The translations under genes were made by a program, and so were the position numbers. Positions 17,283 to 34,284 of a stretch of 64,000 nt of DNA are shown here, one piece after another; the stretch's first letter is position 1; each line of letters begins with the position of its first letter. The DNA lies in the NCBI RefSeq assembly GCF_030209375.1, contig NZ_JARVSC010000003.1, positions 186,001 through 250,000 on the forward strand, in the 5' to 3' direction. Below the pieces are notes generated by a model that was not told the DNA's origin, ran no database searches, and saw nothing but the letters and a program-made list of their open reading frames with translations. The stretch comes from Plantibacter sp. ME-Dv--P-122b (GTDB lineage Bacteria > Actinomycetota > Actinomycetes > Actinomycetales > Microbacteriaceae).

Positions 17283-18602
17283 CTACTCGGCTCCTTCGAC
17301 CCGGAGCACGGACACGACCCGCTCGACGTGGGCGTTCGAGGCGAACTGCTCGACGGTGGCCGCGAGGGCCGATTCGAGCGCCCGGTGGGTGCCGATGACC
17401 AGGGTAGCGGTCGACAGCGTCCCGTCCGAGGAGGCCACGGACTGCTGGAACGTCTCGACCGAGACGCCGCCGTCGCTGAGGATCCCCGCGACCGCGGCGA
17501 GCACGCCGGGTTCGTCGGCCACCTCAAGGGTGACCTGGTACCGCGTCGTGACGCGGCCGATCTCGAGGACCGGCAGGTCGGCGTGCGTGGACTCGCCGAC
17601 ACCGGGACCGCCGGCGACGTGGCGGCGGGCCGCCGAGACGAGGTCGCCGAGCACCGCGGAGGCGGTCTCCTTGCCACCGGCGCCGGCGCCGTAGAACATC
17701 AGGCTCCCGGCGTTCTCGGCCTCCACGAAGACGGCGTTGTTGCCGCCGTGCACCGCGGCGAGCGGGTGCTCACGACCGATGAGCGCCGGGTACACGCGGG
17801 CGGACAGGCCCTCCTCGCCGGTGGTCTCGTCGACGATCCGCTCCGCGATCGCGAGCAGCTTGATGACGTAGCCCTCGCTGCGGGCGAGGTCGACCTGCGC
17901 CTTCGTGATCCCGGTGATGCCCTCACGGTGGACGGCCTCGACGGGGACGGTGGTGTGGAAGGCCAGGCTCGCCAGGATGGTCGCCTTCTGCGCCGCGTCG
18001 TAGCCCTCGACGTCGAGGGTGGGGTCGGCCTCGAGGTACCCGAGCTCGCTCGCGACGGCTGCCGCGTCCTCCATCGTGTCGCCGAAACGGTCCATCCGGT
18101 CGAGCATGTAGTTCGTGCTGCCGTTGACGATACCGAGCACCCGGTTGATGCGGTCGCCCGCGAGGCTCTCCCGCAGGGGCCGGATGATCGGGATCGCTGC
18201 AGCGACGGCCGCCTCGTAGTACAGCTGGGCGCCGACCTGCTCAGCGGCGTCGAACAGTTCGGGGCCGTGCGTCGCGAGCAGCGCCTTGTTGGCGGTGACG
18301 ATGTCGGCACCGGCGTTGATGGCCTGCAGGATGTGGCTGCGCGCCGGCTCGATGCCGCCGATGAGCTCGATCACGATGTCGGCGCTCAGGATGAGCTGCT
18401 CGGCATCGGTCGTGTACAGCTCCTTCGGCAGGTCGACGTCGCGAGGCGCGTCGACGTCGCGCACGGCGATGCCGATGAGCTCGAGACTCGCCCCGGCGCG
18501 GGACGCCAGTTCGTCGGCGTGCTCGAGCAGTAGACGCGCCACCTGGGAGCCCACCGAGCCGGCACCCAGCAGGGCGACTTTCAGTCCGCGGTATTCGATC
18601 AT
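17283..18602 (-). CDS. hom: Homoserine dehydrogenase
   Basis: A 439-residue enzyme that reduces aspartate semialdehyde to homoserine. N-terminal NAD(P) site VALLGAGSVGSQVARLL near residue 9, the catalytic centre GSTNYML (near residue 170) and GYLEADPTLDVEGYDAAQK near residue 195, and a C-terminal ACT domain (QVTLEVADEPGVLAAVAGIL, about residue 355 on) for allosteric feedback by threonine. The start ATG at 18602 overlaps the lysA stop in an ATGA junction; the open frame extends upstream inside lysA but is not used. It is the middle gene of lysA-hom-thrB. Confidence 0.94.
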   Translation of the reverse strand: MIEYRGLKVALLGAGSVGSQVARLLLEHADELASRAGASLELIGIAVRDVDAPRDVDLPKELYTTDAEQLILSADIVIELIGGIEPARSHILQAINAGADIVTANKALLATHGPELFDAAEQVGAQLYYEAAVAAAIPIIRPLRESLAGDRINRVLGIVNGSTNYMLDRMDRFGDTMEDAAAVASELGYLEADPTLDVEGYDAAQKATILASLAFHTTVPVEAVHREGITGITKAQVDLARSEGYVIKLLAIAERIVDETTGEEGLSARVYPALIGREHPLAAVHGGNNAVFVEAENAGSLMFYGAGAGGKETASAVLGDLVSAARRHVAGGPGVGESTHADLPVLEIGRVTTRYQVTLEVADEPGVLAAVAGILSDGGVSVETFQQSVASSDGTLSTATLVIGTHRALESALAATVEQFASNAHVERVVSVLRVEGAE

Positions 18603-20005
18603 TCCGTGTCCAATCCCGCATCGCGGCTGAGGAGGTCGTGTTCGGTCTCGCCCCGCACGATGACGCGGGCCGCGCCACCCGACACGGCGACGACGGCCGG
18701 GCGACCGAGGTAGTTGTAGTTGCTCGCGAGGGACCAGCAGTACGCCCCGGTCGCGGGGACGGCCAGGAGGTCGCCGTCGCGGACGTCCGACGGCAGGTAG
18801 TCGGCGTTCACGACGATGTCGCCCGACTCGCAATGCTTGCCGGCGATCCGGACGAGCGCGGGGGACGCGTCGCTCACGCGATCGGCGATCCGGACCGTGT
18901 AGTCCGCGCCGTACAGCGACGGGCGGGCGTTGTCGCTCATCCCGCCGTCGACGCTCACGTAGCGACGGACGGCGGTCTCGCCCTCGTCGTTCCAAGCGAC
19001 CACGACGTCCTTGATCGTGCCGACCTCGTAGAGCGTGATGCCGGCTCCGCCGATGATCGCGCGTCCCGGTTCGAAGGCGAGCTTCGGGATCGGGACGCCG
19101 TGGAGGTCTGCAGCGGCCTGGACTCCTGCGAGGATGTCCGCCGCGAGCTGCTCGATCGGCGTCGGGTCGTCGGCGCTGGTGTAGGCGATGCCGAAGCCAC
19201 CACCGAGGTTGAGCTCGGGCACGGGGCCGCCCTCGAGCAGGCGGGCGTGCACGGCGAGCAGGCGGGCGGCGGATTCGGCGAACCCGTCGGACCCGAAGAT
19301 CTGCGAGCCGATGTGGCAGTGGAGTCCAAGGAAGTCGAGCGAGGCGTTGGCCCGGATGCGCGCGACGGCGTCGACGGCGTCCTCGAGCGGCAGGCCGAAC
19401 TTCTGGTCCTCGTGGGCGGTCGCGAGGTACTCGTGCGTATGGGCGTGGACACCGCTGTTCACGCGCAGGCGCACGGACTGGACCCGCCCGGCACGCTCGG
19501 CCGCCGCGGCGACGCGGTCGATCTCGGAGAGGCTGTCGAGCACGATGGCACCGATCCCGACACCCACGGCTCGCTCGATCTCCGCGACCGACTTGTTGTT
19601 GCCATGGAAGCCCAGTTGGGCCGGATCGGTTCCGGCGGCGAGTGCGACGGCGAGCTCTCCGCCGCTGCAGATGTCGATGCGGAGGCCCTCCGCGGTCATC
19701 CAGCGCGCGACCTCGGCGGAGAGGAACGCCTTCCCCGCGTAGTAGACGGCGACACTCGTACCGCGGGCGGCCGCCTCACGCTCGAACGCCTCTCTCAGCG
19801 TGCGGGCGCGGGCACGGGCGTCGTCCTCGTCGACGACGTAGAGCGGCGTGCCGAAGCGTTCCCGGAGCGTGCGGACGTCGACGCCGCCGAGCTGCAGGAG
19901 GCCGTCGGTGTCGCGGGCGGCCGAGGCGGGCCACACGGCCGGATCGAGCGCGTTCGGATCGACGGGCTCGGCGAGCCAGTCGGGGGCGAGGGGGTTTCTG
20001 GCCAC
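18599..20005 (-). CDS. lysA: Diaminopimelate decarboxylase
   Basis: A 468-residue PLP enzyme of the alanine racemase fold that decarboxylates meso-diaminopimelate to lysine. PLP Lys is in VAVYYAGKAFLS near residue 72; HCHIGSQIF lies near residue 222, EPGRAIIGGAG near residue 318, and the active-site CESGD near residue 385. The chosen start, GTG at 20005, gives VARNPLAPDWLAEP and has an AGGA seven bases upstream; an in-frame extension of 68 residues further upstream has no family similarity. It heads the lysA-hom-thrB operon. Lysine from here could feed the poly-lysine-type synthetase encoded at 26626-30630 (inference). Confidence 0.93.
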   Translation of the reverse strand: MARNPLAPDWLAEPVDPNALDPAVWPASAARDTDGLLQLGGVDVRTLRERFGTPLYVVDEDDARARARTLREAFEREAAARGTSVAVYYAGKAFLSAEVARWMTAEGLRIDICSGGELAVALAAGTDPAQLGFHGNNKSVAEIERAVGVGIGAIVLDSLSEIDRVAAAAERAGRVQSVRLRVNSGVHAHTHEYLATAHEDQKFGLPLEDAVDAVARIRANASLDFLGLHCHIGSQIFGSDGFAESAARLLAVHARLLEGGPVPELNLGGGFGIAYTSADDPTPIEQLAADILAGVQAAADLHGVPIPKLAFEPGRAIIGGAGITLYEVGTIKDVVVAWNDEGETAVRRYVSVDGGMSDNARPSLYGADYTVRIADRVSDASPALVRIAGKHCESGDIVVNADYLPSDVRDGDLLAVPATGAYCWSLASNYNYLGRPAVVAVSGGAARVIVRGETEHDLLSRDAGLDTE

Positions 20006-20327
20006 GGGGGTGTCCTGAGTCCTGTTGAGCGGAAAAGGAGGTTCTCGTTGGGCGAGCGGACCCGGTTTGGCCCCTGAAGCACCGATTTGCAGAGCACCGA
20101 TGAAGGTGGATGCGCACGACCCGGTGGTTGGTGATCCCGGTCGTCCGCACCCATCGTCGCTCGGTTGGAACGACTGTGGTGGAACACGGGCCGGAGGGCC
20201 CGACGGCACACCTCACCGCCCGGTCGGAGCAGTGGGTGTGTGGAAAGTCTAGCGAGACGCGCGTGCCCGTGCAGCATCGTGACGCCGGGTGGGCCGCTCC
20301 CCTACCCACCGGGTGGAGGGACGAGGG
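20006..20327 (-). promoter_or_regulatory. Long leader region of lysA
   Basis: A 322-base non-coding stretch. On the minus strand a TAGACT -10 candidate lies at 20251-20246, so the lysA mRNA would have a leader of about 235 bases. A GC hairpin (CGGGCC at 20187-20192, GGCCCG at 20197-20202) lies inside it. No lysine-riboswitch core was recognised and no leader peptide rich in Lys or Thr codons is seen. Regulation by this leader is possible but only inferred from its length. Confidence 0.35.
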
Positions 20328-24486: not shown

Positions 24487-24561
24487 GCCTTCGTAGCTCA
24501 GCGGAAGAGCGCTTCCCTCCGGAGGAAGAAGTCGCTGGTTCGAATCCAGTCGAGGGCACCA
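24487..24561 (+). tRNA. tRNA-Arg (CCG anticodon)
   Basis: A full cloverleaf of 75 bases with encoded CCA. The acceptor stem pairs GCCTTCG with CGAGGGC including one G-U pair; the D arm contains TAGCTCAGCGGAAGAGC; the anticodon stem pairs CTTCC with GGAAG around loop CTCCGGA, giving anticodon CCG; the T arm has CTGG, TTCGAAT and CCAG. The discriminator is A. CGG is a frequent Arg codon in this G+C-rich genome. Confidence 0.95.
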
Positions 24562-24616: not shown

Positions 24617-25285
24617 ATGCACCGAGCCGATCCCCTCCCGCAGCCGACGGTCCGCCTCCTGCGCTGGGCCAGCGCCGCTGAGCTCGACCTCGCCGGCACG
24701 GCCGCCCGGCTGGACCCGTCCGCCCGTGACCGCCTCGACACCTTCTCCGCGTCGGCGGCGCACCGGTTCCTGTTCGGTCGCGCACTGCTCGTGCGCACCG
24801 TCGCGGAGACGATCGGCACCGACCCCGAGCGGATCGAGGTCACGGCGGTCTGCCCGGACTGCGGTCTCGCGCACGGACGACCACGGGTGCGCACGGGTGA
24901 CCGGACCGTCCACGCGAGTGTCTCCCACACCGCGGACGCCTCCGCGGTGGCGGTGTCCATCGAGCATCCCGTCGGTGTCGACGTCGAACGGCTCGACGCT
25001 GCCCGGTTCGCCGGAGTCGAGGACGTCGCCCTCACCCCCACGGAACGGGAGGAATGGCGACGGCTCCCCGACCGTCGACGCCTGCGGGCGCTCGCCGAAC
25101 GCTGGACGGCGAAGGAGGCCGTGACGAAGGCCCTAGGCACCGGCCTCACCACCGATCCCGCGACGATCGACCTCGGATCGGGTGCCGCGCGACACGTCAT
25201 CGAGACCGCCGGCCACCGCTTCGTCATCGACCGCCCGGAGCCCGCGCCGGGATTCGTCGTCGCGACGGCCCTCCTGCTCCCCTGA
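24617..25285 (+). CDS. 4'-Phosphopantetheinyl transferase (Sfp type)
   Basis: A 222-residue PPTase that moves phosphopantetheine from CoA to the carrier-protein Ser. Both diagnostic motifs are present: VGVDVERLD near residue 119 and RWTAKEAVTKALGTG near residue 160, with the earlier HASVSHTADASAVAV; length matches Sfp-type enzymes. A CPDCG pair of Cys near residue 76 (AVCPDCGLAHGRPR) may stabilise the fold. It converges with the M1 peptidase gene and lies 1.3 kb from the pls-like NRPS, whose single T-domain Ser569 needs this modification, so it is the probable dedicated partner. ATG at 24617 has a G-rich but close ribosome site. Confidence 0.87.
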   Translation: MHRADPLPQPTVRLLRWASAAELDLAGTAARLDPSARDRLDTFSASAAHRFLFGRALLVRTVAETIGTDPERIEVTAVCPDCGLAHGRPRVRTGDRTVHASVSHTADASAVAVSIEHPVGVDVERLDAARFAGVEDVALTPTEREEWRRLPDRRRLRALAERWTAKEAVTKALGTGLTTDPATIDLGSGAARHVIETAGHRFVIDRPEPAPGFVVATALLLP

Positions 25286-25291
25286 TGCGGT

Positions 25292-26626
25292 TCAGTCGAC
25301 GGGGAACGGCGGGAGCGCCTCCTGGAAGAGCCACGCATCGAGGAGCGGCTCGACCGGTGCCGGTGCATGTCGATCGGCCGTCCGGATGAAGTCGTCCGTC
25401 GACACGCTCGCGTGTCGGAAGGACGCCGCCCAGTCACGCAGGAGGTCGAAGAACGCCTCGTCGCCGAGCAGTCGGCGCACGGCGTGCAGGGCGATCGCGC
25501 CCCGCTTGTAGACCCGGTCGTCGAACATGTCCGCAGGTCCCGGGTCGCCGACGACGATGTCCTGCGGCGCCCGTCGGAGCGCCGCGTAGTGCGCGCGAGC
25601 ACAGGCGTCGGCGGTCTCGGCCCCCGACTCCTCCGACCACAGCCACTCGGCGTAGCAGGCGAAGCCCTCGTGCAACCAGATGTCCCGCCAGGTGGCGATC
25701 GTCAGGCTGTTCCCGAACCACTGGTGGGCGAGCTCGTGCGCGATCAACCGCTCCGAACCGCCGACGCCGTCGACGTGGTTGCGGCCGAACACGCTCACGC
25801 CCTGCGCCTCGAGTGGGATCTCCAGCACGTCGTCGGTGACGACGACGCCGTAGCTACCGAAGGGGTAGGGCCCGAAGGCGCGCTCGAAGCACGCCAACAT
25901 GTCGACCTGGTCGGCGAAGTCGTGTCGGAACCGCGCGGTGAGGTCGCGCGGCAGGTGTGCGACCACCGGCACCGTGGTCGTCGCGACCCGAGCGCTGACG
26001 GCGAGCCGCTGGTACCGGCCGATCTGCACCGTCGCGAGGTAGGCGGCCATCGGTTCGGGCTGCTCGTAGACCCAGGTGGTCCGGCTCGCGCGTGCGACCC
26101 GCGACATCAGCTCCCCGGGGGCGACGACCGTGTACGCCGACGAGGCCGTGACACTGATCCGATAGGACGACTTGTCCGAGGGGTGGTCGTTGCAGGGGAA
26201 CCAACTCGATGCGCCGCACGGCTGGGACGCCACGATGACGCCGTCCTCGAGTTCCTCCCAGCCGATCTCGCCCCACGGGCTGCGCACGGGACGGGGCGCA
26301 CCCGAGTAGCGGACGAGCACGGAGAACTCGGCGCCGTCCGCGATGGTGCTCCGCGGCGTCAACGTGAGCTTGCCCGAGCCGTGCGTCCGCTTCGCCTCGG
26401 CCCCGTCGACCTGGACCCGGGTGACGCGCAGCGCAGCGAGGTCGAGCGAGAACCGCGTGAGCTCCTCCGTCGCGACAGCGGTGAGCCGAGCCGTCCCGGA
26501 CAGGGCGTTCCGGTCGACGTCGTAGTCGAGCTCCAGCTCGTACCGCACGACGCGGTAGCCACGATTCCCGCTGGAGGGCGTGTAGGGGTCGCCTGCGCTC
26601 CGCAGACGGGCGAGAGCCTCCCCCAT
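25292..26626 (-). CDS. M1 family zinc metallopeptidase (short form)
   Basis: A 444-residue M1-type peptidase made of the N-terminal beta domain and the thermolysin-like catalytic domain only; the C-terminal helical domains of larger aminopeptidases are missing. The zinc site is HELAH at 297-301 with the third ligand Glu320 in LHEGFACYAEW. The exopeptidase motif GAMEN is replaced by LEAQG near residues 272-276. A TGATG overlap couples it to the pls-like gene, which fixes the start at 26626. No signal peptide is seen, so it should act in the cytoplasm. Aminopeptidases able to cut epsilon-poly-lysine accompany some producers, so trimming or self-protection is plausible but inferred. Confidence 0.85.
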   Translation of the reverse strand: MGEALARLRSAGDPYTPSSGNRGYRVVRYELELDYDVDRNALSGTARLTAVATEELTRFSLDLAALRVTRVQVDGAEAKRTHGSGKLTLTPRSTIADGAEFSVLVRYSGAPRPVRSPWGEIGWEELEDGVIVASQPCGASSWFPCNDHPSDKSSYRISVTASSAYTVVAPGELMSRVARASRTTWVYEQPEPMAAYLATVQIGRYQRLAVSARVATTTVPVVAHLPRDLTARFRHDFADQVDMLACFERAFGPYPFGSYGVVVTDDVLEIPLEAQGVSVFGRNHVDGVGGSERLIAHELAHQWFGNSLTIATWRDIWLHEGFACYAEWLWSEESGAETADACARAHYAALRRAPQDIVVGDPGPADMFDDRVYKRGAIALHAVRRLLGDEAFFDLLRDWAASFRHASVSTDDFIRTADRHAPAPVEPLLDAWLFQEALPPFPVD

Positions 26627-29600
26627 CAGGACGCGACCTGGGGCTCCCGGTACTCCGCCGTCGTCACCTCGCGCCACGGGCCGATCGGGTTGCCGCTCCA
26701 TCGGGTGCCGGCCGGAACGCGTTCGCCGCGCATGACGAGCGAGGCCGGTCCGACCGTCGCGTCGTCGTCGATCCGCGCTCCGGGGAGGATGACGCTGTGC
26801 GGCCCGAGCGTGGCACCCGATGCGAGTTCGACCTGATCCATACTCATGATTCGATCATGGAACAGGTGCGTTTGCACAACGCAGCCCCGGTTGACGGTCG
26901 CGCCGTCGCCGAGTTCGACGAGGTCGGCCTCCGGAAGCCAGTAGCTCTCGCACCAGACCCCGCGGCCGATGCGGGCTCCGAGCGAGCGCAACCACCAGGT
27001 GAGGGCGGGGGTGCCGGTGGCGGGAGCCGCGAACCAGGGTGCCGCGACCATCTCGACGAAGGTGTCGGACACCTCGTTGCGCCAGATGAACGAGGACCAG
27101 AGCGGGTGCTCCCCCGCGCGGATCGGGCCGACGATCACCCATTTGGCGACGGTCGTGATCCCCGCCGCGACCGCGCCGGCGGCCAACAGCACGGCTCCGC
27201 TGACGGCGATCGCCACGCCGAGACCCCAGGTGTCGGCGAACCAGGCGAGCGTGAGGAGCACCAGGAGTGCGATGCCGGTCGTCACCATGACCGGGACGAT
27301 GCGACAGAGCTCCCACAGCGCGCGGGCGATCCGGAGCCGGAGCGGCGGGTCGTAGGTCCGGTCGAGATCGGCGTCGGACACCTGCCGCCGGAGTCGCATC
27401 GGGGGGCTCCCGAGCCAGGACGAGCCGGACTTGGCCTTGCGCGGTGCGGCCGACAACACGGCGACGAGCCCGTTCTTCGGGACGTGCATGCCGGGCCCCG
27501 CCATGCCCGAGTTGCCGAGGAAGGCGCGCTTGCCGACGGACGCTCCGGCGATCCGCATCCACCCGCCGCCGAGCTCGTAGGACGCCACCATCGTGTCGTC
27601 CGCGAGGAAGGCACCGTCACCGACGGTCGTCATCCGCGGGAGGAGGAGCACCGTGGACGCTTCAACGTTGCGCCCGACCTTCGCCCCGAGCAGGCGGAGC
27701 CAGACGGGTGTGAAGAGGCTCGCGTACAGCGGGAAGAGGAGGGTGCGCGCGGCGTCGAGGAGCCGCTCTGTGGCCCACACCTGCCAGCCGACCCGACTGC
27801 GCACCGGGAAGTAACCCTCGCTGAGACCGAGGCCGAGCAGCCGGACCAGACCGATCGTGCTGATCGCCAGGACGACGAACCACACGAGGGTGGCGACGGG
27901 CACCCAGAGGAGCGCGCGCCAGGAGAACTCGAGCAGACTCGTCGCGCCCGAGGCACCGGCCGCCACGACCACCGCTGCGAGGACGAAGGCGAGGAACGGC
28001 AGCACCGACAGCAGCGCCGATCCCGCGCCGTACGCGAACAGCCAGCGTCGACGCCGCGGGGGGCGTTCGGTCGGCCAGACCGGTTTCGCCTTGCCGACGC
28101 GGACGGCGGGCGACCCGGACCACAGGTGTCCGGAGGGGACGCGGCCGAAGACGGACGATCCTGGCGCGATCTCCGCACGCTTGCCGATCCGGGTTCCGGC
28201 GAGCAGGGTGCTGCGAGCGCCGACCGTGCTCTCGGCGCCGATGTGGACGTGGCCGAGCCGGAGCGTGTCGCCGTCGACCCAGTAGCCGCGGAGGTCGACC
28301 TCGGGCTCGATCGATGCGCGCGCCCCGACGGTGAGGAACCCGGTGACGGGCGGCACGCTGTGGAGGTCCGCGTCGGCACCGATCTTCGCGCCGAGCGCCC
28401 TGGCGTAGCCCGAGATCCACGGGGCACCGGCGAGACTCACCGCGCCGACCGTGTCGGCGACGCGTTCGGCGAGCCAGAGTCGCACGTGGACCGAGCCACC
28501 GCGGGGGTAGTCGCCCGGGCGGACGCCGATGAGGAGGAGCTTCGCGGCGACGACGGAGATCGCCATGCGCCCGATCGGGGTGATGACCACGAGGAACCCG
28601 AGGGCGATCCACCACCAGGAGACCATCGGCAGGTACGGTACGTCGGCGACGTGGCCGAGCACCCGGCTGCCGGCGAGGAGGTACACGAGCCACCGGAGGC
28701 CGACGAGGATGAGGAGCGGGACACCCAGGAGGGTCTGCGCCCACTGGGTCCCGAGCGGCGTCGGGAGCACGGGGTCCGCGACGGCCGCTCGGCTGCGCCG
28801 CTCGGGGCGTCGTCCGTCGAGTTCGGCTGCCATCGCGCCGAGTCGGGGGTGTCCGTAGATGTCGGCGACCGTGAACTCGGCGTCTCGGGTGCGGATGAGC
28901 GAGACGAGCTGTGCGGCCGCCAGGCTCCCGCCGCCCAGGCTGAAGAAGTTGTCGCTCTCGGCCGTGACCCGGACACCGAGGACGGCCGTCCACTGCTCGG
29001 CGAGCCATGCGGCGGTGCCCGACAGGGTCGAGGCGTCCTCGCCGTCGGCGGTGTCGAGCGGCCACGGCAGCGCGGCCCGGTCGACCTTGCCGGAGGTGCG
29101 GGTGGGCAGCTCTCCGACGACCGCGAGGAGCGGGACGAGCGGTGCCGGGAGCTGCTCGCGGAGGGTGCCGAGGGCGCTCTCGACGGAGAACCCGTCGCGG
29201 TCGGGCACCGCGAGGTACCCGACGAGGACGGCGTTCCCGGCGGCGGTGCGCTGGACGGCTGCTGCCGCACCCGAGACGCCCGGCAGCGCCTGCAGGGCGG
29301 CCTCGATCTCGCCGAGTTCCACGCGCCGACCGCCGATCTTCACCTGATCGTCCGCGCGCCCCTGGAACACGAGTCCTGCGGCCTCGTAGCGGACGAGGTC
29401 GCCGCTCCGGTACGCCCGCGACCACCCGATGCTCGGCATGGACGCATACCGTTCGGCGTCCTTGGCGGGGTCGAGGTACCGGGCGAGTCCGACGCCGCCG
29501 ATGATGAGCTCGCCGACGCCGCCCTCCTCGACCGGGACGCCCTCGGCGTCGACCACGGCGAGGTCCCAGCCGTCGAGCGGCAGTCCGATGCGCACGGGCT

Positions 29601-30630
29601 GTTCGCCGGTCAGCAGCGCAGCACAGGCCACGACGGTGGCCTCGGTGGGTCCGTAGGTGTTCCAGACCTCGCGGCCGTCCACGGCCAGCCGGGCTGCGAG
29701 CTCCGGCGGGCAGGCCTCGCCGCCGAAGATGAGCATGCGGATGTTCTCGAGGGACTCGGCGGGCCACATCGCCGCCAGCGTGGGCACCGTCGAGACCACG
29801 GTGATGCCCTTCGCGGTGAGCCATGGGCCGAGGTCCATGCCACTGCGGACGAGCGAGCGCGGCGCCGGGACCAGACACGCGCCGTGTCCCCAGGCGAGCC
29901 ACATCTCCTCGCAGGACGCGTCAAAGGCGACGGACAGCCCGGCCAGCACGCGATCACCGGGTCCGAGCGGTTCCGCCTGAAGGAAGAGCCTCGCCTCGGC
30001 GTCGACGAACGCGGCGGCAGAGCGGTGCGAGACGGCGACGCCCTTCGGCGTGCCCGTCGAGCCGGAGGTGAAGATGATCCAGGAGTCGTCGTCGAGTCGC
30101 GGTGGTTCGAGGACCGGGATCGCCCGGGTGCCCGGGTGGGGTGCGGCGCCCGTCGCGAGCTGCACCCGGTCGGGATCGGCACCGTCCTCGCCCGGGTCCG
30201 CCACACCGTGGCGGGAGCGCTCGAAGACACCGCCGTCGACCAGGACGCCCACGACGGCCGCCTCGCCGAACACGAGTCGTGCCCGCTCCTCCGGGTCGTC
30301 GGCGTCGACGGGCACGTAGGCCGCTCCGGTGAACAGGATGCCGAGGATCCCGAGGTAGAGGTCACGGGTGCCCGAGGCGATCCGGACACCGACCCGGTCA
30401 CCGCGGCGGACCCCGGCGGCGAACAGGCCGGCCGCGACCCGCTCAGCGCTGAGGACGAGCTCGCGGTAGCTGAGCGCTCCCTCCGCGTCCTCGATCGCCG
30501 AGGCCTCCGGGTTCGATGCGGCGACGTCACGGAGGACGTCGAGGAGGGTGCGTTCGGCCGGTGCGCGCACGCCGCCGAGCAGCGCGGGCTGCCGCTCGAT
30601 GAGGAGGGCGGTGCTGGTGTCGGCGTCCAT
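26626..30630 (-). CDS. Pls/PosA-type membrane NRPS (A-T-six TM-three tandem C-terminal domains)
   Basis: A 1334-residue protein with the layout of epsilon-poly-L-lysine synthetase. The adenylation domain (about 30-520) has FTSGSTGTPKG at 187-197, FDASCEEM at 236-243, YGPTEAT near 326 and catalytic Lys515. The carrier domain has LGGGS with Ser569. From about 640 to 1334 come six hydrophobic helices in three pairs, each pair followed by a domain with hexapeptide-like turns (VGARASIEPEV, LGAKVGRNVEAST, LGARIGRGVW). This is the Pls/PosA arrangement; no condensation or thioesterase domain of the usual kind is present. Specificity residues give DAESIGTVVK, close to the lysine code. The ATG at 30630 has AGGGGA upstream. 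The M1 peptidase gene is translationally coupled. Confidence 0.9.
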   Translation of the reverse strand: MDADTSTALLIERQPALLGGVRAPAERTLLDVLRDVAASNPEASAIEDAEGALSYRELVLSAERVAAGLFAAGVRRGDRVGVRIASGTRDLYLGILGILFTGAAYVPVDADDPEERARLVFGEAAVVGVLVDGGVFERSRHGVADPGEDGADPDRVQLATGAAPHPGTRAIPVLEPPRLDDDSWIIFTSGSTGTPKGVAVSHRSAAAFVDAEARLFLQAEPLGPGDRVLAGLSVAFDASCEEMWLAWGHGACLVPAPRSLVRSGMDLGPWLTAKGITVVSTVPTLAAMWPAESLENIRMLIFGGEACPPELAARLAVDGREVWNTYGPTEATVVACAALLTGEQPVRIGLPLDGWDLAVVDAEGVPVEEGGVGELIIGGVGLARYLDPAKDAERYASMPSIGWSRAYRSGDLVRYEAAGLVFQGRADDQVKIGGRRVELGEIEAALQALPGVSGAAAAVQRTAAGNAVLVGYLAVPDRDGFSVESALGTLREQLPAPLVPLLAVVGELPTRTSGKVDRAALPWPLDTADGEDASTLSGTAAWLAEQWTAVLGVRVTAESDNFFSLGGGSLAAAQLVSLIRTRDAEFTVADIYGHPRLGAMAAELDGRRPERRSRAAVADPVLPTPLGTQWAQTLLGVPLLILVGLRWLVYLLAGSRVLGHVADVPYLPMVSWWWIALGFLVVITPIGRMAISVVAAKLLLIGVRPGDYPRGGSVHVRLWLAERVADTVGAVSLAGAPWISGYARALGAKIGADADLHSVPPVTGFLTVGARASIEPEVDLRGYWVDGDTLRLGHVHIGAESTVGARSTLLAGTRIGKRAEIAPGSSVFGRVPSGHLWSGSPAVRVGKAKPVWPTERPPRRRRWLFAYGAGSALLSVLPFLAFVLAAVVVAAGASGATSLLEFSWRALLWVPVATLVWFVVLAISTIGLVRLLGLGLSEGYFPVRSRVGWQVWATERLLDAARTLLFPLYASLFTPVWLRLLGAKVGRNVEASTVLLLPRMTTVGDGAFLADDTMVASYELGGGWMRIAGASVGKRAFLGNSGMAGPGMHVPKNGLVAVLSAAPRKAKSGSSWLGSPPMRLRRQVSDADLDRTYDPPLRLRIARALWELCRIVPVMVTTGIALLVLLTLAWFADTWGLGVAIAVSGAVLLAAGAVAAGITTVAKWVIVGPIRAGEHPLWSSFIWRNEVSDTFVEMVAAPWFAAPATGTPALTWWLRSLGARIGRGVWCESYWLPEADLVELGDGATVNRGCVVQTHLFHDRIMSMDQVELASGATLGPHSVILPGARIDDDATVGPASLVMRGERVPAGTRWSGNPIGPWREVTTAEYREPQVAS

Positions 30631-30789: not shown

Positions 30790-32124
30790 ATGACCATCGA
30801 CTACTCCGTGCCCCAGGAACGCCAGCTCGTGACCGCCATCCCCGGCCCCCGATCGCTCGCCCTCACGGAACGGCGCCGCCGCGCGGTGTCGCGCGGTGCC
30901 GGCAACCTCGCGCCGGTGTGGATGGACCACGGCTCCGGCGGCATCCTCGTCGACGTCGACGGCAACCACATCATCGACCTCGGAACGGGTATCGGCGTGA
31001 CGACCATCGGGCACGCCAACCCCGACGTCGCCGCGGCAGCAGCCGAGCAGGCGACGAAGCTCACGCACACGCTCTTCACCGTGACGCCGTACGAGAACTA
31101 CCTGCGCGTCGCGGAGAAGCTGTCCGAGATCACGCCGGGCGACTTCGAGAAGCGCTCGATCCTCTTGAACTCCGGTGCCGAGGCCGTCGAGAACGCGGTG
31201 AAGATCGCGAAGAAGTACACCGGTCGTCGCGCGATCGTCGCCCTCGACCACGCCTTCCACGGACGCACGAACCTGACGATGGCGATGACCTACCGGCCGG
31301 CACCCGAGCGCCTCGGGTTCGGCCCGTTCCCCGGCGAGATCTACAGCGTCCCGCTCTCCTACCCCTTCCGCGACGGACTCGACGGACCGGCGGCTGCCGA
31401 GGCGACGATCGACTACATCGAGCGGCACATCGGTGCGAGCGAGGTCGCGGCGTTCTTCGCCGAACCGGTCCTCGGCGACGGCGGCATCGTCATCCCCGCG
31501 CCCGGCTACTTCGCGCGCATCAGCGAGTGGTGCACCGAGAACGGGATCGTGTTCGTCGCCGACGAGATCCAGGCCGGCATCGGCCGCACGGGTGCGTGGT
31601 ACTCGATCGAGCACCACGGTGTCGTGCCCGACCTCGTCACGAGCGCCAAGGGTATCGCCGGCGGTTTCCCGCTGTCGGCCGTGACCGGGCGTGCCGAGAT
31701 CATGGACGCCGTCCAGCCGGGTGGCATCGGCGGTACCTTCGGCGGCAACCCCGTGTCGACGGCGGCCGCGCTCGCGACGTTCGAGGTCATCGAGCGCGAG
31801 GACCTGCTGGGCGAGGCCCGTCGGGTGGAGGCGACCCTGCGCTCCCTCATGGGTGACTGGGCCGAGCGCTTCGACATCGTCGGCGAGGTCCGGATCATCG
31901 GTGCGATGGCCGGCGTCGAGTTCGTCGTCCCCGGCACGAAGCAGCCGCACCCCACGGCGCTGCAGACGGTCATCGACGCGGCGATCGCCCAGGGTGTGCT
32001 CGTGCTCGACGCCGGCTCCTGGGACTCGGTGCTGCGACTCCTCCCGAGTGCGGTCATGTCCGACGAGCTCCTCCGCGACGCGGTGTCCGTCCTCGAGGAC
32101 GCCCTGGGTCAGGTCGCCGCCTAG
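30790..32124 (+). CDS. gabT: 4-Aminobutyrate aminotransferase
   Basis: A 444-residue class III PLP aminotransferase. N-terminal motif GSGGILVDVDGNHIIDLGTGIG near residue 50, the PLP-ring segment LLNSGAEAVENAVKIA near 128, VADEIQAGIGRTG near 258 and the PLP Lys in VTSAKGIAGGFPLSAV near 285 place it with GABA aminotransferases, which transfer the amino group of GABA to 2-oxoglutarate. TACCAT lies 7 bases before the ATG at 30790, so the mRNA should be leaderless; an ATG three codons upstream is an alternative. A PuuD-like gene 1.2 kb on could make GABA. It is divergent from the pls-like gene. Confidence 0.87.
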   Translation: MTIDYSVPQERQLVTAIPGPRSLALTERRRRAVSRGAGNLAPVWMDHGSGGILVDVDGNHIIDLGTGIGVTTIGHANPDVAAAAAEQATKLTHTLFTVTPYENYLRVAEKLSEITPGDFEKRSILLNSGAEAVENAVKIAKKYTGRRAIVALDHAFHGRTNLTMAMTYRPAPERLGFGPFPGEIYSVPLSYPFRDGLDGPAAAEATIDYIERHIGASEVAAFFAEPVLGDGGIVIPAPGYFARISEWCTENGIVFVADEIQAGIGRTGAWYSIEHHGVVPDLVTSAKGIAGGFPLSAVTGRAEIMDAVQPGGIGGTFGGNPVSTAAALATFEVIEREDLLGEARRVEATLRSLMGDWAERFDIVGEVRIIGAMAGVEFVVPGTKQPHPTALQTVIDAAIAQGVLVLDAGSWDSVLRLLPSAVMSDELLRDAVSVLEDALGQVAA

Positions 32125-32331: not shown

Positions 32332-33162
32332 TCAGTCGACGGTGACGAAGTCGATGAGCTGCTCGACGCGACCGAGGAGCTCCGGCTCGAGGTCGTTGAA
32401 GGTCCGGACCTGACCGAGGATGCGCTTCCAGGCACGGGCGATGTCGGCCTGCGAGTCGTGCGGCCAGCCGAACGCCTGGCAGATGCCCTTCTTCCACTCG
32501 ATGGAGCGAGGGATGGTCGGCCACTCGCGCAGGCCGACCCTGGCCGGCTTCACGGCCTGCCAGACGTCGACGTACGGGTGCCCGACGATGAGGACGTTCC
32601 GGCCGTTCGGTCCGGCCATGACGGCATCGGCGATCCGCTGCTCCTTCGAGCCGGGGACCAGATGGTCGACGAGGACACCGACACGACGGTCGGGGCCCGG
32701 CCGGAACTCGGCGAGCGCGGCGTCGAGGTGGTCGACGCCCGCGAGGTATTCGACGACGACGCCCTCCACGCGGAGGTCGTCGCCCCAGACCCGCTCGACG
32801 AGTTCCGCGTCGTGGCGACCCTCGACGAAGATCCGGCTCGCACGAGCCACCCGAGCGGTCGTCTCCACCGCGAAGGAGCCGGAGGCGGTGCGCGCCCGCC
32901 CGGTCGGTGCACGCTTCGGCACGACGAGGACGACGGGCTCACCCTCGAGGAGGAACCCTGCCCCCATGGGGAACACACGTCGCTTACCGCGGTAGTCCTC
33001 GAGCTCGACCGTCTTCGCCTCCACGCGCGTGATCGCGCCGCAGAAGCCGCCGAGTTCCTCGACCACGAGGTCGGTCACCGCCTCGACCTCACGGGCCACC
33101 ACACGGTTCTTCTTCCGCCAGTCCCCCGCGAGGACGTCCTGACCGTACCTGTCTTCGAACAC
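32332..33162 (-). CDS. DUF3097 family protein
   Basis: A 276-residue cytoplasmic protein starting MFEDRYGQDVLAGDWRKKNR, strongly resembling the actinobacterial DUF3097 family, function unknown. It has an N-terminal segment with GFCGAITRVEAKTVELED, a central basic VVPKRAPTGRARTASGS, then FVEGRHDAELVERVWGDDLR, which resembles a toprim-like acidic strand, and GVLVDHLVPGSKEQRI. Those last motifs suggest a nucleic-acid enzyme fold but no activity can be assigned. GTG at 33162 has TAGCGT six bases upstream and should be leaderless. Confidence 0.8.
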   Translation of the reverse strand: MFEDRYGQDVLAGDWRKKNRVVAREVEAVTDLVVEELGGFCGAITRVEAKTVELEDYRGKRRVFPMGAGFLLEGEPVVLVVPKRAPTGRARTASGSFAVETTARVARASRIFVEGRHDAELVERVWGDDLRVEGVVVEYLAGVDHLDAALAEFRPGPDRRVGVLVDHLVPGSKEQRIADAVMAGPNGRNVLIVGHPYVDVWQAVKPARVGLREWPTIPRSIEWKKGICQAFGWPHDSQADIARAWKRILGQVRTFNDLEPELLGRVEQLIDFVTVD

Positions 33163-33282: not shown

Positions 33283-34029
33283 TCAGGCTGCGGCGCGCTC
33301 GGCCTCGCGGGCGAGACCGCCGAGCAGGAGCCCGAGCTGGTCGTCCACGGTGCCCGGGTCCTCCGGGTGCCACTGCACGCCGGTGATCGGCAGGGTGCGG
33401 TGCTCGATCGCCTCGACGGTGCCGTCGGAGGCCCAGGCGACGGCGCGGAGGCCTTCGCCGAGCTCGCCGACCGACTGGTGGTGGGCGCTCTGCACCTGGA
33501 GGTGACGGGCACCGAGTCGGAACGCGAGGGCACTCGAGGGGTCGAGCTCGACCTCGTGCGGGGTCATGCTCTCATCGACCGGGACGCCCTCGTTGCGGTG
33601 GGCGCTGTGCTCACCGAGATCCTGCACGAGCGTCCCGCCGAGGGCGACGTTGATGATCTGGTGACCGCGGCAGATCCCGAGCAGCGGTGTGCCCCGCTCG
33701 GCGGCGCGACGGGCGACCGCCAGCTGGGCGCGGTCGGCCTCGGGGAAGTGCTGACCCTCGGCGCGGTAGCCGGTGGTGCCGCCGTAGTGCGCGGGATCGA
33801 TGTCGGCTCCGCCCATGATGACGACGGCGGAGGCCCCGTCGGTCGAGGCGAGGAGCGCATCGGTGCCGAGATCGTGCGCGGCCAACCGGGTCACGCGCCA
33901 GCCGACCCGTTCGGCGGCGGCGATGGTCCGTCCGACGAGGATCTGCACGTACTCGTGGTACGCCTGGTCGTCCTCACGGAACCTGGTGACCTCGACGAGC
34001 GCCAGCATGGGTGAGACGTGTCCTTGCAT
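33283..34029 (-). CDS. Gamma-glutamyl-gamma-aminobutyrate hydrolase-like class I glutamine amidotransferase
   Basis: A 248-residue stand-alone GATase1 domain of the PuuD type. The nucleophile Cys is in PLLGICRGHQIINVALGGTL near residue 105, the catalytic His-Glu pair in GVQWHPEDPG near residue 220, and MGGADIDPAHYGG near residue 71 is the usual N-terminal motif. PuuD frees GABA from gamma-glutamyl-GABA in putrescine catabolism; the nearby gabT would then use GABA, though the two are on opposite strands. ATG at 34029 follows an AAGGAG site by 4 bases. Confidence 0.83.
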   Translation of the reverse strand: MQGHVSPMLALVEVTRFREDDQAYHEYVQILVGRTIAAAERVGWRVTRLAAHDLGTDALLASTDGASAVVIMGGADIDPAHYGGTTGYRAEGQHFPEADRAQLAVARRAAERGTPLLGICRGHQIINVALGGTLVQDLGEHSAHRNEGVPVDESMTPHEVELDPSSALAFRLGARHLQVQSAHHQSVGELGEGLRAVAWASDGTVEAIEHRTLPITGVQWHPEDPGTVDDQLGLLLGGLAREAERAAA

Positions 34030-34284
34030 GATGCTCCTTCCAGGGGTTCCGTGCCGTGACTCCACCAGTCTCGCCGGGCCCGTCGTCCCGCGCGAGCGCC
34101 CGCGTCATGGTCGGTAACAGAGTCACTGCCGGCGACCGTGAACCTCCGTCACCGCCGTATAGCACAGCTCCGGTTCGGTGCGCTCGCTGGGAGCCCGCTG
34201 TAGAGATGTCGAGGGCCCGGACCTAGACTCGGAACCGAGCCGCGGGTTGGGGCTCCAGGGTCCGAACGAGTGACGAGGTGGCCG

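What the first reader, a model, noticed from the sequence alone, without database searches (positions are those of the whole stretch)
24617..30630. A compact Pls/PosA-type poly-amino-acid locus: membrane NRPS, coupled M1 peptidase, PPTase
The 1334-residue protein has one adenylation domain, one carrier domain, six helices and three tandem C-terminal domains, the arrangement of epsilon-poly-L-lysine synthetase. The M1 peptidase gene starts inside its stop codon (TGATG), and an Sfp-type PPTase gene converges 7 bases beyond. All parts for making, activating and possibly trimming an isopeptide homopolymer are within 6 kb.
Basis: partly seen in the sequence, partly recalled or inferred. Interest (0 to 1): 0.8.

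Follow-up and report, generated by a model that had tools for sequence, protein, structure and literature searches.

The report
Polylysine synthetase operon with partner peptidase
This is a bacterial gene set that very probably makes the antimicrobial polymer epsilon-poly-lysine, together with a peptidase that can probably cut it and an enzyme that switches the synthetase on; it is a new example of a known and widespread system, with a peptidase that, unlike the studied Streptomyces one, seems to stay inside the cell.

Summary
Window 26626-30630 (-) encodes a 1334-aa A-T-C1-C2-C3 membrane synthetase; an M1 peptidase overlaps its stop codon by one base (TGATG); an Sfp-type PPTase converges 6 bases beyond. 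The Pls interpretation holds: the terminal region scores 743.6 bits against the NCBI Pls/PosA model (cut-off 423.1), the best solved relative of the A domain is the epsilon-poly-lysine synthetase A domain 7wew (E 4e-185), and ten pocket positions read by motif are identical to it. Lysine is favoured over ornithine or diaminobutyrate. It is not new: pls-pldII operons are published in Streptomyces and Corynebacterium variabile, with Pls homologs in Microbacterium, and relatives occur in 119 of 299 sampled genomes of this family. Two details go beyond the passages I could read. An Sfp-type PPTase lies next to or near pls in 103 of 119 Pls-positive family genomes, so it is probably the dedicated activator. 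The peptidase here has no export leader; a Tat-like leader was seen in 8 of 69 named loci with the peptidase, all Streptomyces, and in none of 130 loci from 101 genomes of this order. Product and peptidase location are predictions.

The parts
26626..30630 (-). Pls-type epsilon-poly-lysine synthetase, 1334 aa (A-T-C1-C2-C3, six TM)
   Evidence: TIGR02353 743.6 bits, AMP-binding, PP-binding; 7wew top PDB hit
29047..30561 (-). Adenylation domain, residues 24-528; pocket D237 A238 E241 S280 I301 G303 T325 V333 V334 and the Lys of RTSGKVDR
28822..29007 (-). Carrier (T) domain, residues 542-603; expected phosphopantetheine serine in SLGGGSL (Ser569)
   Evidence: PF00550; position; serine role by general knowledge of carrier domains
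26683..28740 (-). Pls/PosA terminal region, residues 631-1316: three TM pairs each followed by a beta-helix-like domain
   Evidence: TIGR02353, AlphaFold2 model, Foldseek to hexapeptide acetyltransferases
25292..26626 (-). M1 metallopeptidase (PldII-like), 444 aa, HELAH-x18-E zinc site, no hydrophobic or Tat-like leader; start overlaps NRPS stop by one base
   Evidence: PF01433 and PF17900; 45% identity to the gene in pldII position of L065; leader survey; zinc motif
24617..25285 (+). Sfp-type 4'-phosphopantetheinyl transferase, 222 aa, converging on the M1 gene with a 6-base gap
   Evidence: PF01648; conserved GVDVE and WTxKEAxxKA positions; linkage

Best explanation
An epsilon-poly-L-lysine (pls) operon. 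The A domain activates L-lysine with ATP (inferred from the pocket). The neighbouring Sfp-type PPTase loads phosphopantetheine on Ser569 of the T domain (inferred from order-wide linkage). The lysyl thioester is joined repeatedly through epsilon-amino groups by the three acetyltransferase-like domains held between membrane helix pairs, and the chain leaves through or beside this membrane region (by analogy with Streptomyces Pls). The translationally coupled M1 peptidase hydrolyses the polymer (by analogy with PldII). Because it carries no export leader it most likely works in the cytoplasm, as an inner guard or recycler of chains that were not exported, rather than outside as in Streptomyces.
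For: A domain vs 7wew E 4e-185. Pocket DAESIGTVVK in the window, in 7wew and in 156 of 157 locus frames of at least 1100 aa (20 of these are repeat fetches and one is the window itself); L105 differs at one place; 3 of 160 loci had no such frame. Terminal domain far over cut-off. 53.8% identity to L065; for scale, C. variabile Pls, proven to make epsilon-PL, is 51% identical to Streptomyces Pls and 31-33% identical to the Dap and Dab polymer synthetases (PMC8117764, parts 1-2 of 4 read). M1 in 116 of 119 Pls+ vs 2 of 180 Pls- family genomes. PPTase profile in 117 of 119 Pls+ vs 24 of 180 Pls-. Placement in 119 Pls+ genomes: 92 convergent at 1.2-2.6 kb behind pls, 2 more convergent within 6 kb, 9 upstream within 2.5 kb on the same strand. 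Own genome: three PPTase and three carrier-domain matches, of which one of each lies here and another pair about 5 kb apart on contig C12.
Against: No biochemistry; pocket reading cannot prove product or chain length. C. variabile made no detectable polymer itself, nor did C. glutamicum expressing its Pls, so the locus may be silent. The window lies in a different clade from the Streptomyces-type synthetases, and I could not place the C. variabile enzyme on that tree. Of 119 Pls+ genomes 16 have no listed PPTase near pls: 9 on another contig only, 4 far away, 3 with no listed row. Loss of Pld and PldII had no effect on yield or chain length in S. albulus (PMC8506220, passage), so the peptidase's role is open. 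Leader absence rests on hydropathy and motif reading, not on a signal-peptide predictor; start codons are unproven.
Confidence: 0.85

Rival explanations
1. The synthetase makes another cationic isopeptide homopolymer (gamma-poly-diaminobutyrate, beta-poly-diaminopropionate or poly-ornithine).
For: Same architecture is published for the Dap and Dab polymer synthetases. A transaminase gene lies divergently at 30790-32124.
Against: Pocket identical to the lysine enzyme 7wew; the other synthetases are 31-33% identical to C. variabile Pls and are reported to have substantially different pockets and other gene contexts. The transaminase scores best to GABA transaminase models (just under their cut-offs) and no Dab transaminase model is among the 25 of 49 families shown.
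Confidence: 0.08
2. The clade around this window makes a short or intracellular lysine isopeptide rather than a secreted antimicrobial polymer, and the leaderless peptidase turns it over inside the cell.
For: A hydrophobic Tat-like leader was seen only in 8 Streptomyces loci. On the tree the Streptomyces-type side (17 rows) carries the leader form (8) or no M1 in the held DNA (9, two of them cut by a contig end); all 79 rows of the other side carry the leaderless form.
Against: C. variabile Pls gave 26-35-mers when expressed in S. coelicolor, though its clade is unknown to me. The membrane region is as complete here as in L065. A cytosolic guard does not preclude export.
Confidence: 0.2
3. The M1 gene and PPTase are chance neighbours without a role.
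For: In 74 of 80 named loci no PPTase was found in the held DNA; the six with one are Arthrobacter (3), Pseudarthrobacter, Humibacillus and Brachybacterium.
Against: Co-occurrence and placement counts; convergent PPTase within 300 bases of the M1 frame in 50 of 70 loci, 47 of 66 genera.
Confidence: 0.04

Closest known systems
Streptomyces albulus pls-pldII operon (epsilon-poly-L-lysine synthetase and type II degrading enzyme)
   Same: Domain order, identical pocket (7wew), M1 peptidase directly downstream with overlapping genes (PMC4361855 passage: 4-bp overlap, single operon; PMC9223678 passage: translationally coupled).
   Different: 54% identity to the near-S. albulus L065; overlap is 1 base instead of 4; peptidase has no Tat-like leader (published PldII lies on the exterior of the membrane, PMC9223678 passage); a PPTase gene adjoins.
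Corynebacterium variabile pls-peptidase operon (PMC8117764, parts 1-2 of 4 read)
   Same: Non-filamentous actinobacterium with Pls and operonic peptidase; product shown to be epsilon-PL by expression in S. coelicolor.
   Different: Sequence not obtained here, so leader, PPTase and clade could not be compared.
NAPAA (non-alpha poly-amino acid) clusters called by antiSMASH in Micrococcaceae, Dermatophilaceae, Subtercola and Herbiconiux (PMC11078813, PMC10303725, PMC10011130; passages)
   Same: Same class of cluster in related families or the same family.
   Different: The passages seen do not describe peptidase leader or PPTase linkage.
gamma-PDDAB, gamma-PLDAB and beta-PDAP synthetases (as described in PMC8117764)
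   Same: A-T plus three tandem domains and six TM.
   Different: 31-33% identity to C. variabile Pls, different pockets, different gene context without the peptidase operon.

Membership tests
Pls / epsilon-poly-L-lysine synthetase | A and T domains without classical condensation or thioesterase domain | tested here: met
   Pfam: AMP-binding, PP-binding and hexapeptide repeats are the only matches
Pls / epsilon-poly-L-lysine synthetase | Three tandem acetyltransferase-related domains separated by six TM segments | tested here: met
   TIGR02353, hydropathy, model, fold search (TM-scores low against the whole fragment)
Pls / epsilon-poly-L-lysine synthetase | Lysine-type pocket identical or nearly so to confirmed Pls | tested here: met
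   DAESIGTVVK as in 7wew; residues located by motif, not by superposition
Pls / epsilon-poly-L-lysine synthetase | Operon with PldII-type M1 peptidase | tested here: met
   co-transcription itself not tested
Pls / epsilon-poly-L-lysine synthetase | Makes epsilon-poly-L-lysine | not testable with these tools
   needs expression and mass spectrometry
[quoted passage not shown]
   window and 199 of 199 M1 matches; the 199 include repeat fetches of the same loci
[quoted passage not shown]
   no hydrophobic N-terminus even from the upstream in-frame ATG; so the gene is PldII-like, not filed as PldII itself
[quoted passage not shown]
   enzyme assay needed
Sfp-type PPTase | Acidic and W-KEA-K catalytic motifs | tested here: met
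   G120, D122, E124, W163, E167, K171 invariant in 18 aligned PPTases; PF01648

The most novel reading that the evidence does not exclude
Outside the Streptomyces-type clade, pls operons of Actinomycetota, including this one, are a second form of the system: the coupled peptidase is cytosolic rather than exported, and in this window's order it is usually joined by a dedicated PPTase. In these bacteria the polymer would be made and turned over from the inside, which the Streptomyces picture of external self-protection does not describe.
Probability: 0.35. Interest if true: 0.5.

Novelty: new member of a known kind. Interest (0 to 1): 0.3.

Why it matters
It predicts epsilon-poly-lysine capacity across many actinobacteria and gives two testable handles: co-express the linked PPTase when the synthetase yields no polymer (C. 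variabile Pls was expressed in C. glutamicum without product, PMC8117764), and ask what a peptidase for a secreted polymer does inside the cell.

Tried and rejected
Dab-polymer reading because of the divergent transaminase: its best matches are GABA transaminase models, so I gave it low odds. A named plasmid relative of known product: 20 plasmid records match, 15 listed, none listed with a characterised product. A solved structure of the tandem domains: by sequence only hexapeptide-type proteins such as gamma-carbonic anhydrases and acetyltransferases match weakly, and Foldseek gives acetyltransferases with low TM-scores to the 735-residue query. Locating the C. variabile synthetase failed, so its clade and peptidase leader stay unknown. 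Literature on 'PosA' synthetases: nothing relevant in the 2 papers listed. Literature on a PPTase linked to pls: searches listed 10 of 39 and 10 of 639 papers; no title or abstract start reports it, and the one passage opened for it (PMC4361855) concerns gene enrichment, not linkage. Literature on a leader of PldII: the 8 of 2,057 papers listed do not hold 'pldII'; one search gave nothing beyond 'exterior of the cell membrane'. Many papers are not held (for instance Yamanaka 2010), so these are not claims of absence from print. Tree labels: if the nine rows without M1 are set against the leader rows, treekit's table needs 4 changes for the leader label (shuffled mean 6.0); with those rows left out it needs 1.

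Full report
What is there. The synthetase gene runs 30630..26626 on the minus strand and encodes 1334 residues. It has one adenylation domain, one carrier domain and the Pls/PosA terminal region (TIGR02353, 743.6 bits, cut-off 423.1). Hydrophobic segments form what I read as three pairs. A model of residues 600-1334 from an alignment of 40 sequences is confident (pLDDT 83.3, pTM 0.87) and shows three repeats of long helices plus a strand-rich, beta-helix-like block. The best fold matches are hexapeptide acetyltransferases, with low TM-scores against the whole fragment. The M1 gene starts on the last base of the stop codon, TGATG, and the PPTase gene ends 6 bases from the M1 stop on the other strand.

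What it activates. [quoted passage not shown] I located the ten classical pocket positions by their motifs (numbering recalled from gramicidin synthetase) and compared them on an alignment: DAESIGTVVK in the window, in 7wew and in 156 of 157 locus frames; L105 has I for V at one place. Of the 157 frames, 20 are repeat fetches and one is the window itself; three of the 160 loci given (L087, L111, L114) had no open frame of 1100 aa and were not counted. PMC8117764 (parts 1 and 2 of 4 read) uses the same argument for coryneform homologs, including Microbacterium.

How common it is. Relatives occur in 7 of 7 genomes of the genus, 119 of 299 sampled from the family, 90 of 297 from the order, all at E 1e-100, and 82 of 345 from the class at E 1e-150.

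The peptidase. It is 45% identical to the gene in the pldII position of L065, a Streptomyces whose Pls A domain is 92% identical to 7wew. In the family sample the M1 protein (E 1e-80) is present in 116 of 119 Pls-positive genomes and 2 of 180 Pls-negative ones (recounted; positive genomes lacking it: G134, G222, G266; negative genomes having it: G281, with a weak 41% match, and G294). In L065 the M1 frame can start with a GTG that overlaps the NRPS stop by 4 bases, as published for S. albulus (PMC4361855, passage), and begins with a twin-arginine-like stretch SRRALLRG followed by a hydrophobic run. I scored the stretch before the conserved part of all 199 M1 matches (recounted): 8 loci, L065, L066, L068, L069, L070, L072, L073 and L082, all Streptomyces, combine such a motif with a 15-residue hydropathy of 1.36 to 1.93; the next highest value is 1.13, in 18 loci the stretch is too short to score, and 20 others have a twin-arginine-like motif without a hydrophobic run. 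The 8 are of 69 named loci with an M1 (80 fetched, 11 without, four of them cut by a contig end: L067, L111, L113, L114). On a FastTree of 96 synthetases, 17 rows (8 with leader, 9 with no M1 in the held DNA) split from 79 rows (all with leaderless M1) at support 100 (midpoint root, for drawing only; L105 is a long branch; the C. variabile sequence is not in it). PldII is stated to lie outside the membrane in S. albulus (PMC9223678, passages), so the leaderless form should behave differently. Against a simple trimming role, a review says that loss of Pld and PldII changed neither yield nor chain length (PMC8506220, passage), whereas the knock-down paper calls PldII pivotal for self-protection. 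Start codons were not proven and no signal predictor was run.

The PPTase. A profile of 18 PPTases linked to pls matches 141 of 299 family genomes at E 1e-5: 117 of 119 Pls-positive (not G222, G250) and 24 of 180 Pls-negative (recounted). The profile also finds Sfp-type PPTases away from pls, and at most ten first-look candidates per genome were scored, so the contrast is approximate. Positions for 119 Pls-positive genomes: 92 convergent at 1.2-2.6 kb behind pls, about room for the M1; 2 convergent a little further; 9 upstream within 2.5 kb on the same strand; 9 on another contig only; 4 far on the same contig; 3 with no listed row (G134's weak match was not listed). In 70 loci read downstream, from 66 genera, 50 (47 genera) have the convergent PPTase within 300 bases of the M1 frame, 4 have it further downstream and 16 have none in the held DNA; in two of those 16, L165 (G010) and L172 (G041), it lies just upstream of pls. 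Of 80 named loci, 6 have a PPTase match, all in Arthrobacter, Pseudarthrobacter, Humibacillus or Brachybacterium, one of them (L110) on the other side of pls and one (L134) in the same direction as the M1; a divergent PPTase could have been missed. In the window's genome one PPTase and one carrier domain lie here, another such pair lies about 5 kb apart on contig C12, and the third PPTase is a 121-aa frame of AcpS size (the AcpS name is inferred). This fits one activator per carrier protein.

Mechanism and verdict. I read it as a pls operon: PPTase primes the T domain, the A domain loads lysine, the tandem domains polymerise through the epsilon-amino group at the membrane, the peptidase degrades. 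Shown: gene anatomy, family membership, pocket identity, linkage, no visible leader. Inferred: lysine as substrate, epsilon linkage, export, cytosolic peptidase action, PPTase dedication. The finding is a good annotation of a known, common system. Its modest extra interest is the leaderless peptidase and the PPTase linkage across the order.

Noticed in passing
window 30790-32124 (+): Divergent GABA-transaminase-like gene beside pls; best to NF004714 and TIGR00700 but just under both cut-offs. It is beside pls in 7 of 7 genus loci (L005-L011) and in none of the other 53 short-flank loci; in L149 and L150 a related gene lies downstream instead.
   Followed up: partly
window 17283-20209 (-): Homoserine dehydrogenase and a PLP decarboxylase of the DAP/ornithine decarboxylase family (probably lysA, the last lysine step) lie about 4.4 kb from the PPTase, with arginyl-tRNA synthetase and three other genes between; likely ordinary synteny, but it puts a lysine biosynthesis gene near a lysine polymer gene.
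   Followed up: no
window 24487-24561 (+): tRNA-Arg (CCG) 55 bases upstream of the PPTase start.
   Followed up: no
window 33283-34065 (-) and 32332-33162 (-): Peptidase C26 (gamma-glutamyl-type hydrolase) and a DUF3097 protein beyond the transaminase.
   Followed up: no
L208 (G331): M1 gene lies about 3.5 kb downstream of pls instead of directly behind it.
   Followed up: no
G076, G138, G190 (genus g71): A second, 31-32% identical synthetase; in each of the three the PPTase match lies about 3 to 6 kb from that paralog instead of beside the pls copy.
   Followed up: no
G265 (genus g46): Six PPTase-profile matches but no Pls match, unlike four Pls-positive members of the same genus.
   Followed up: no
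L074, L075, L081, L093, L127: Four Kitasatospora loci and one Streptomyces locus of one clade with the same pocket but no M1 peptidase in the held DNA.
   Followed up: no
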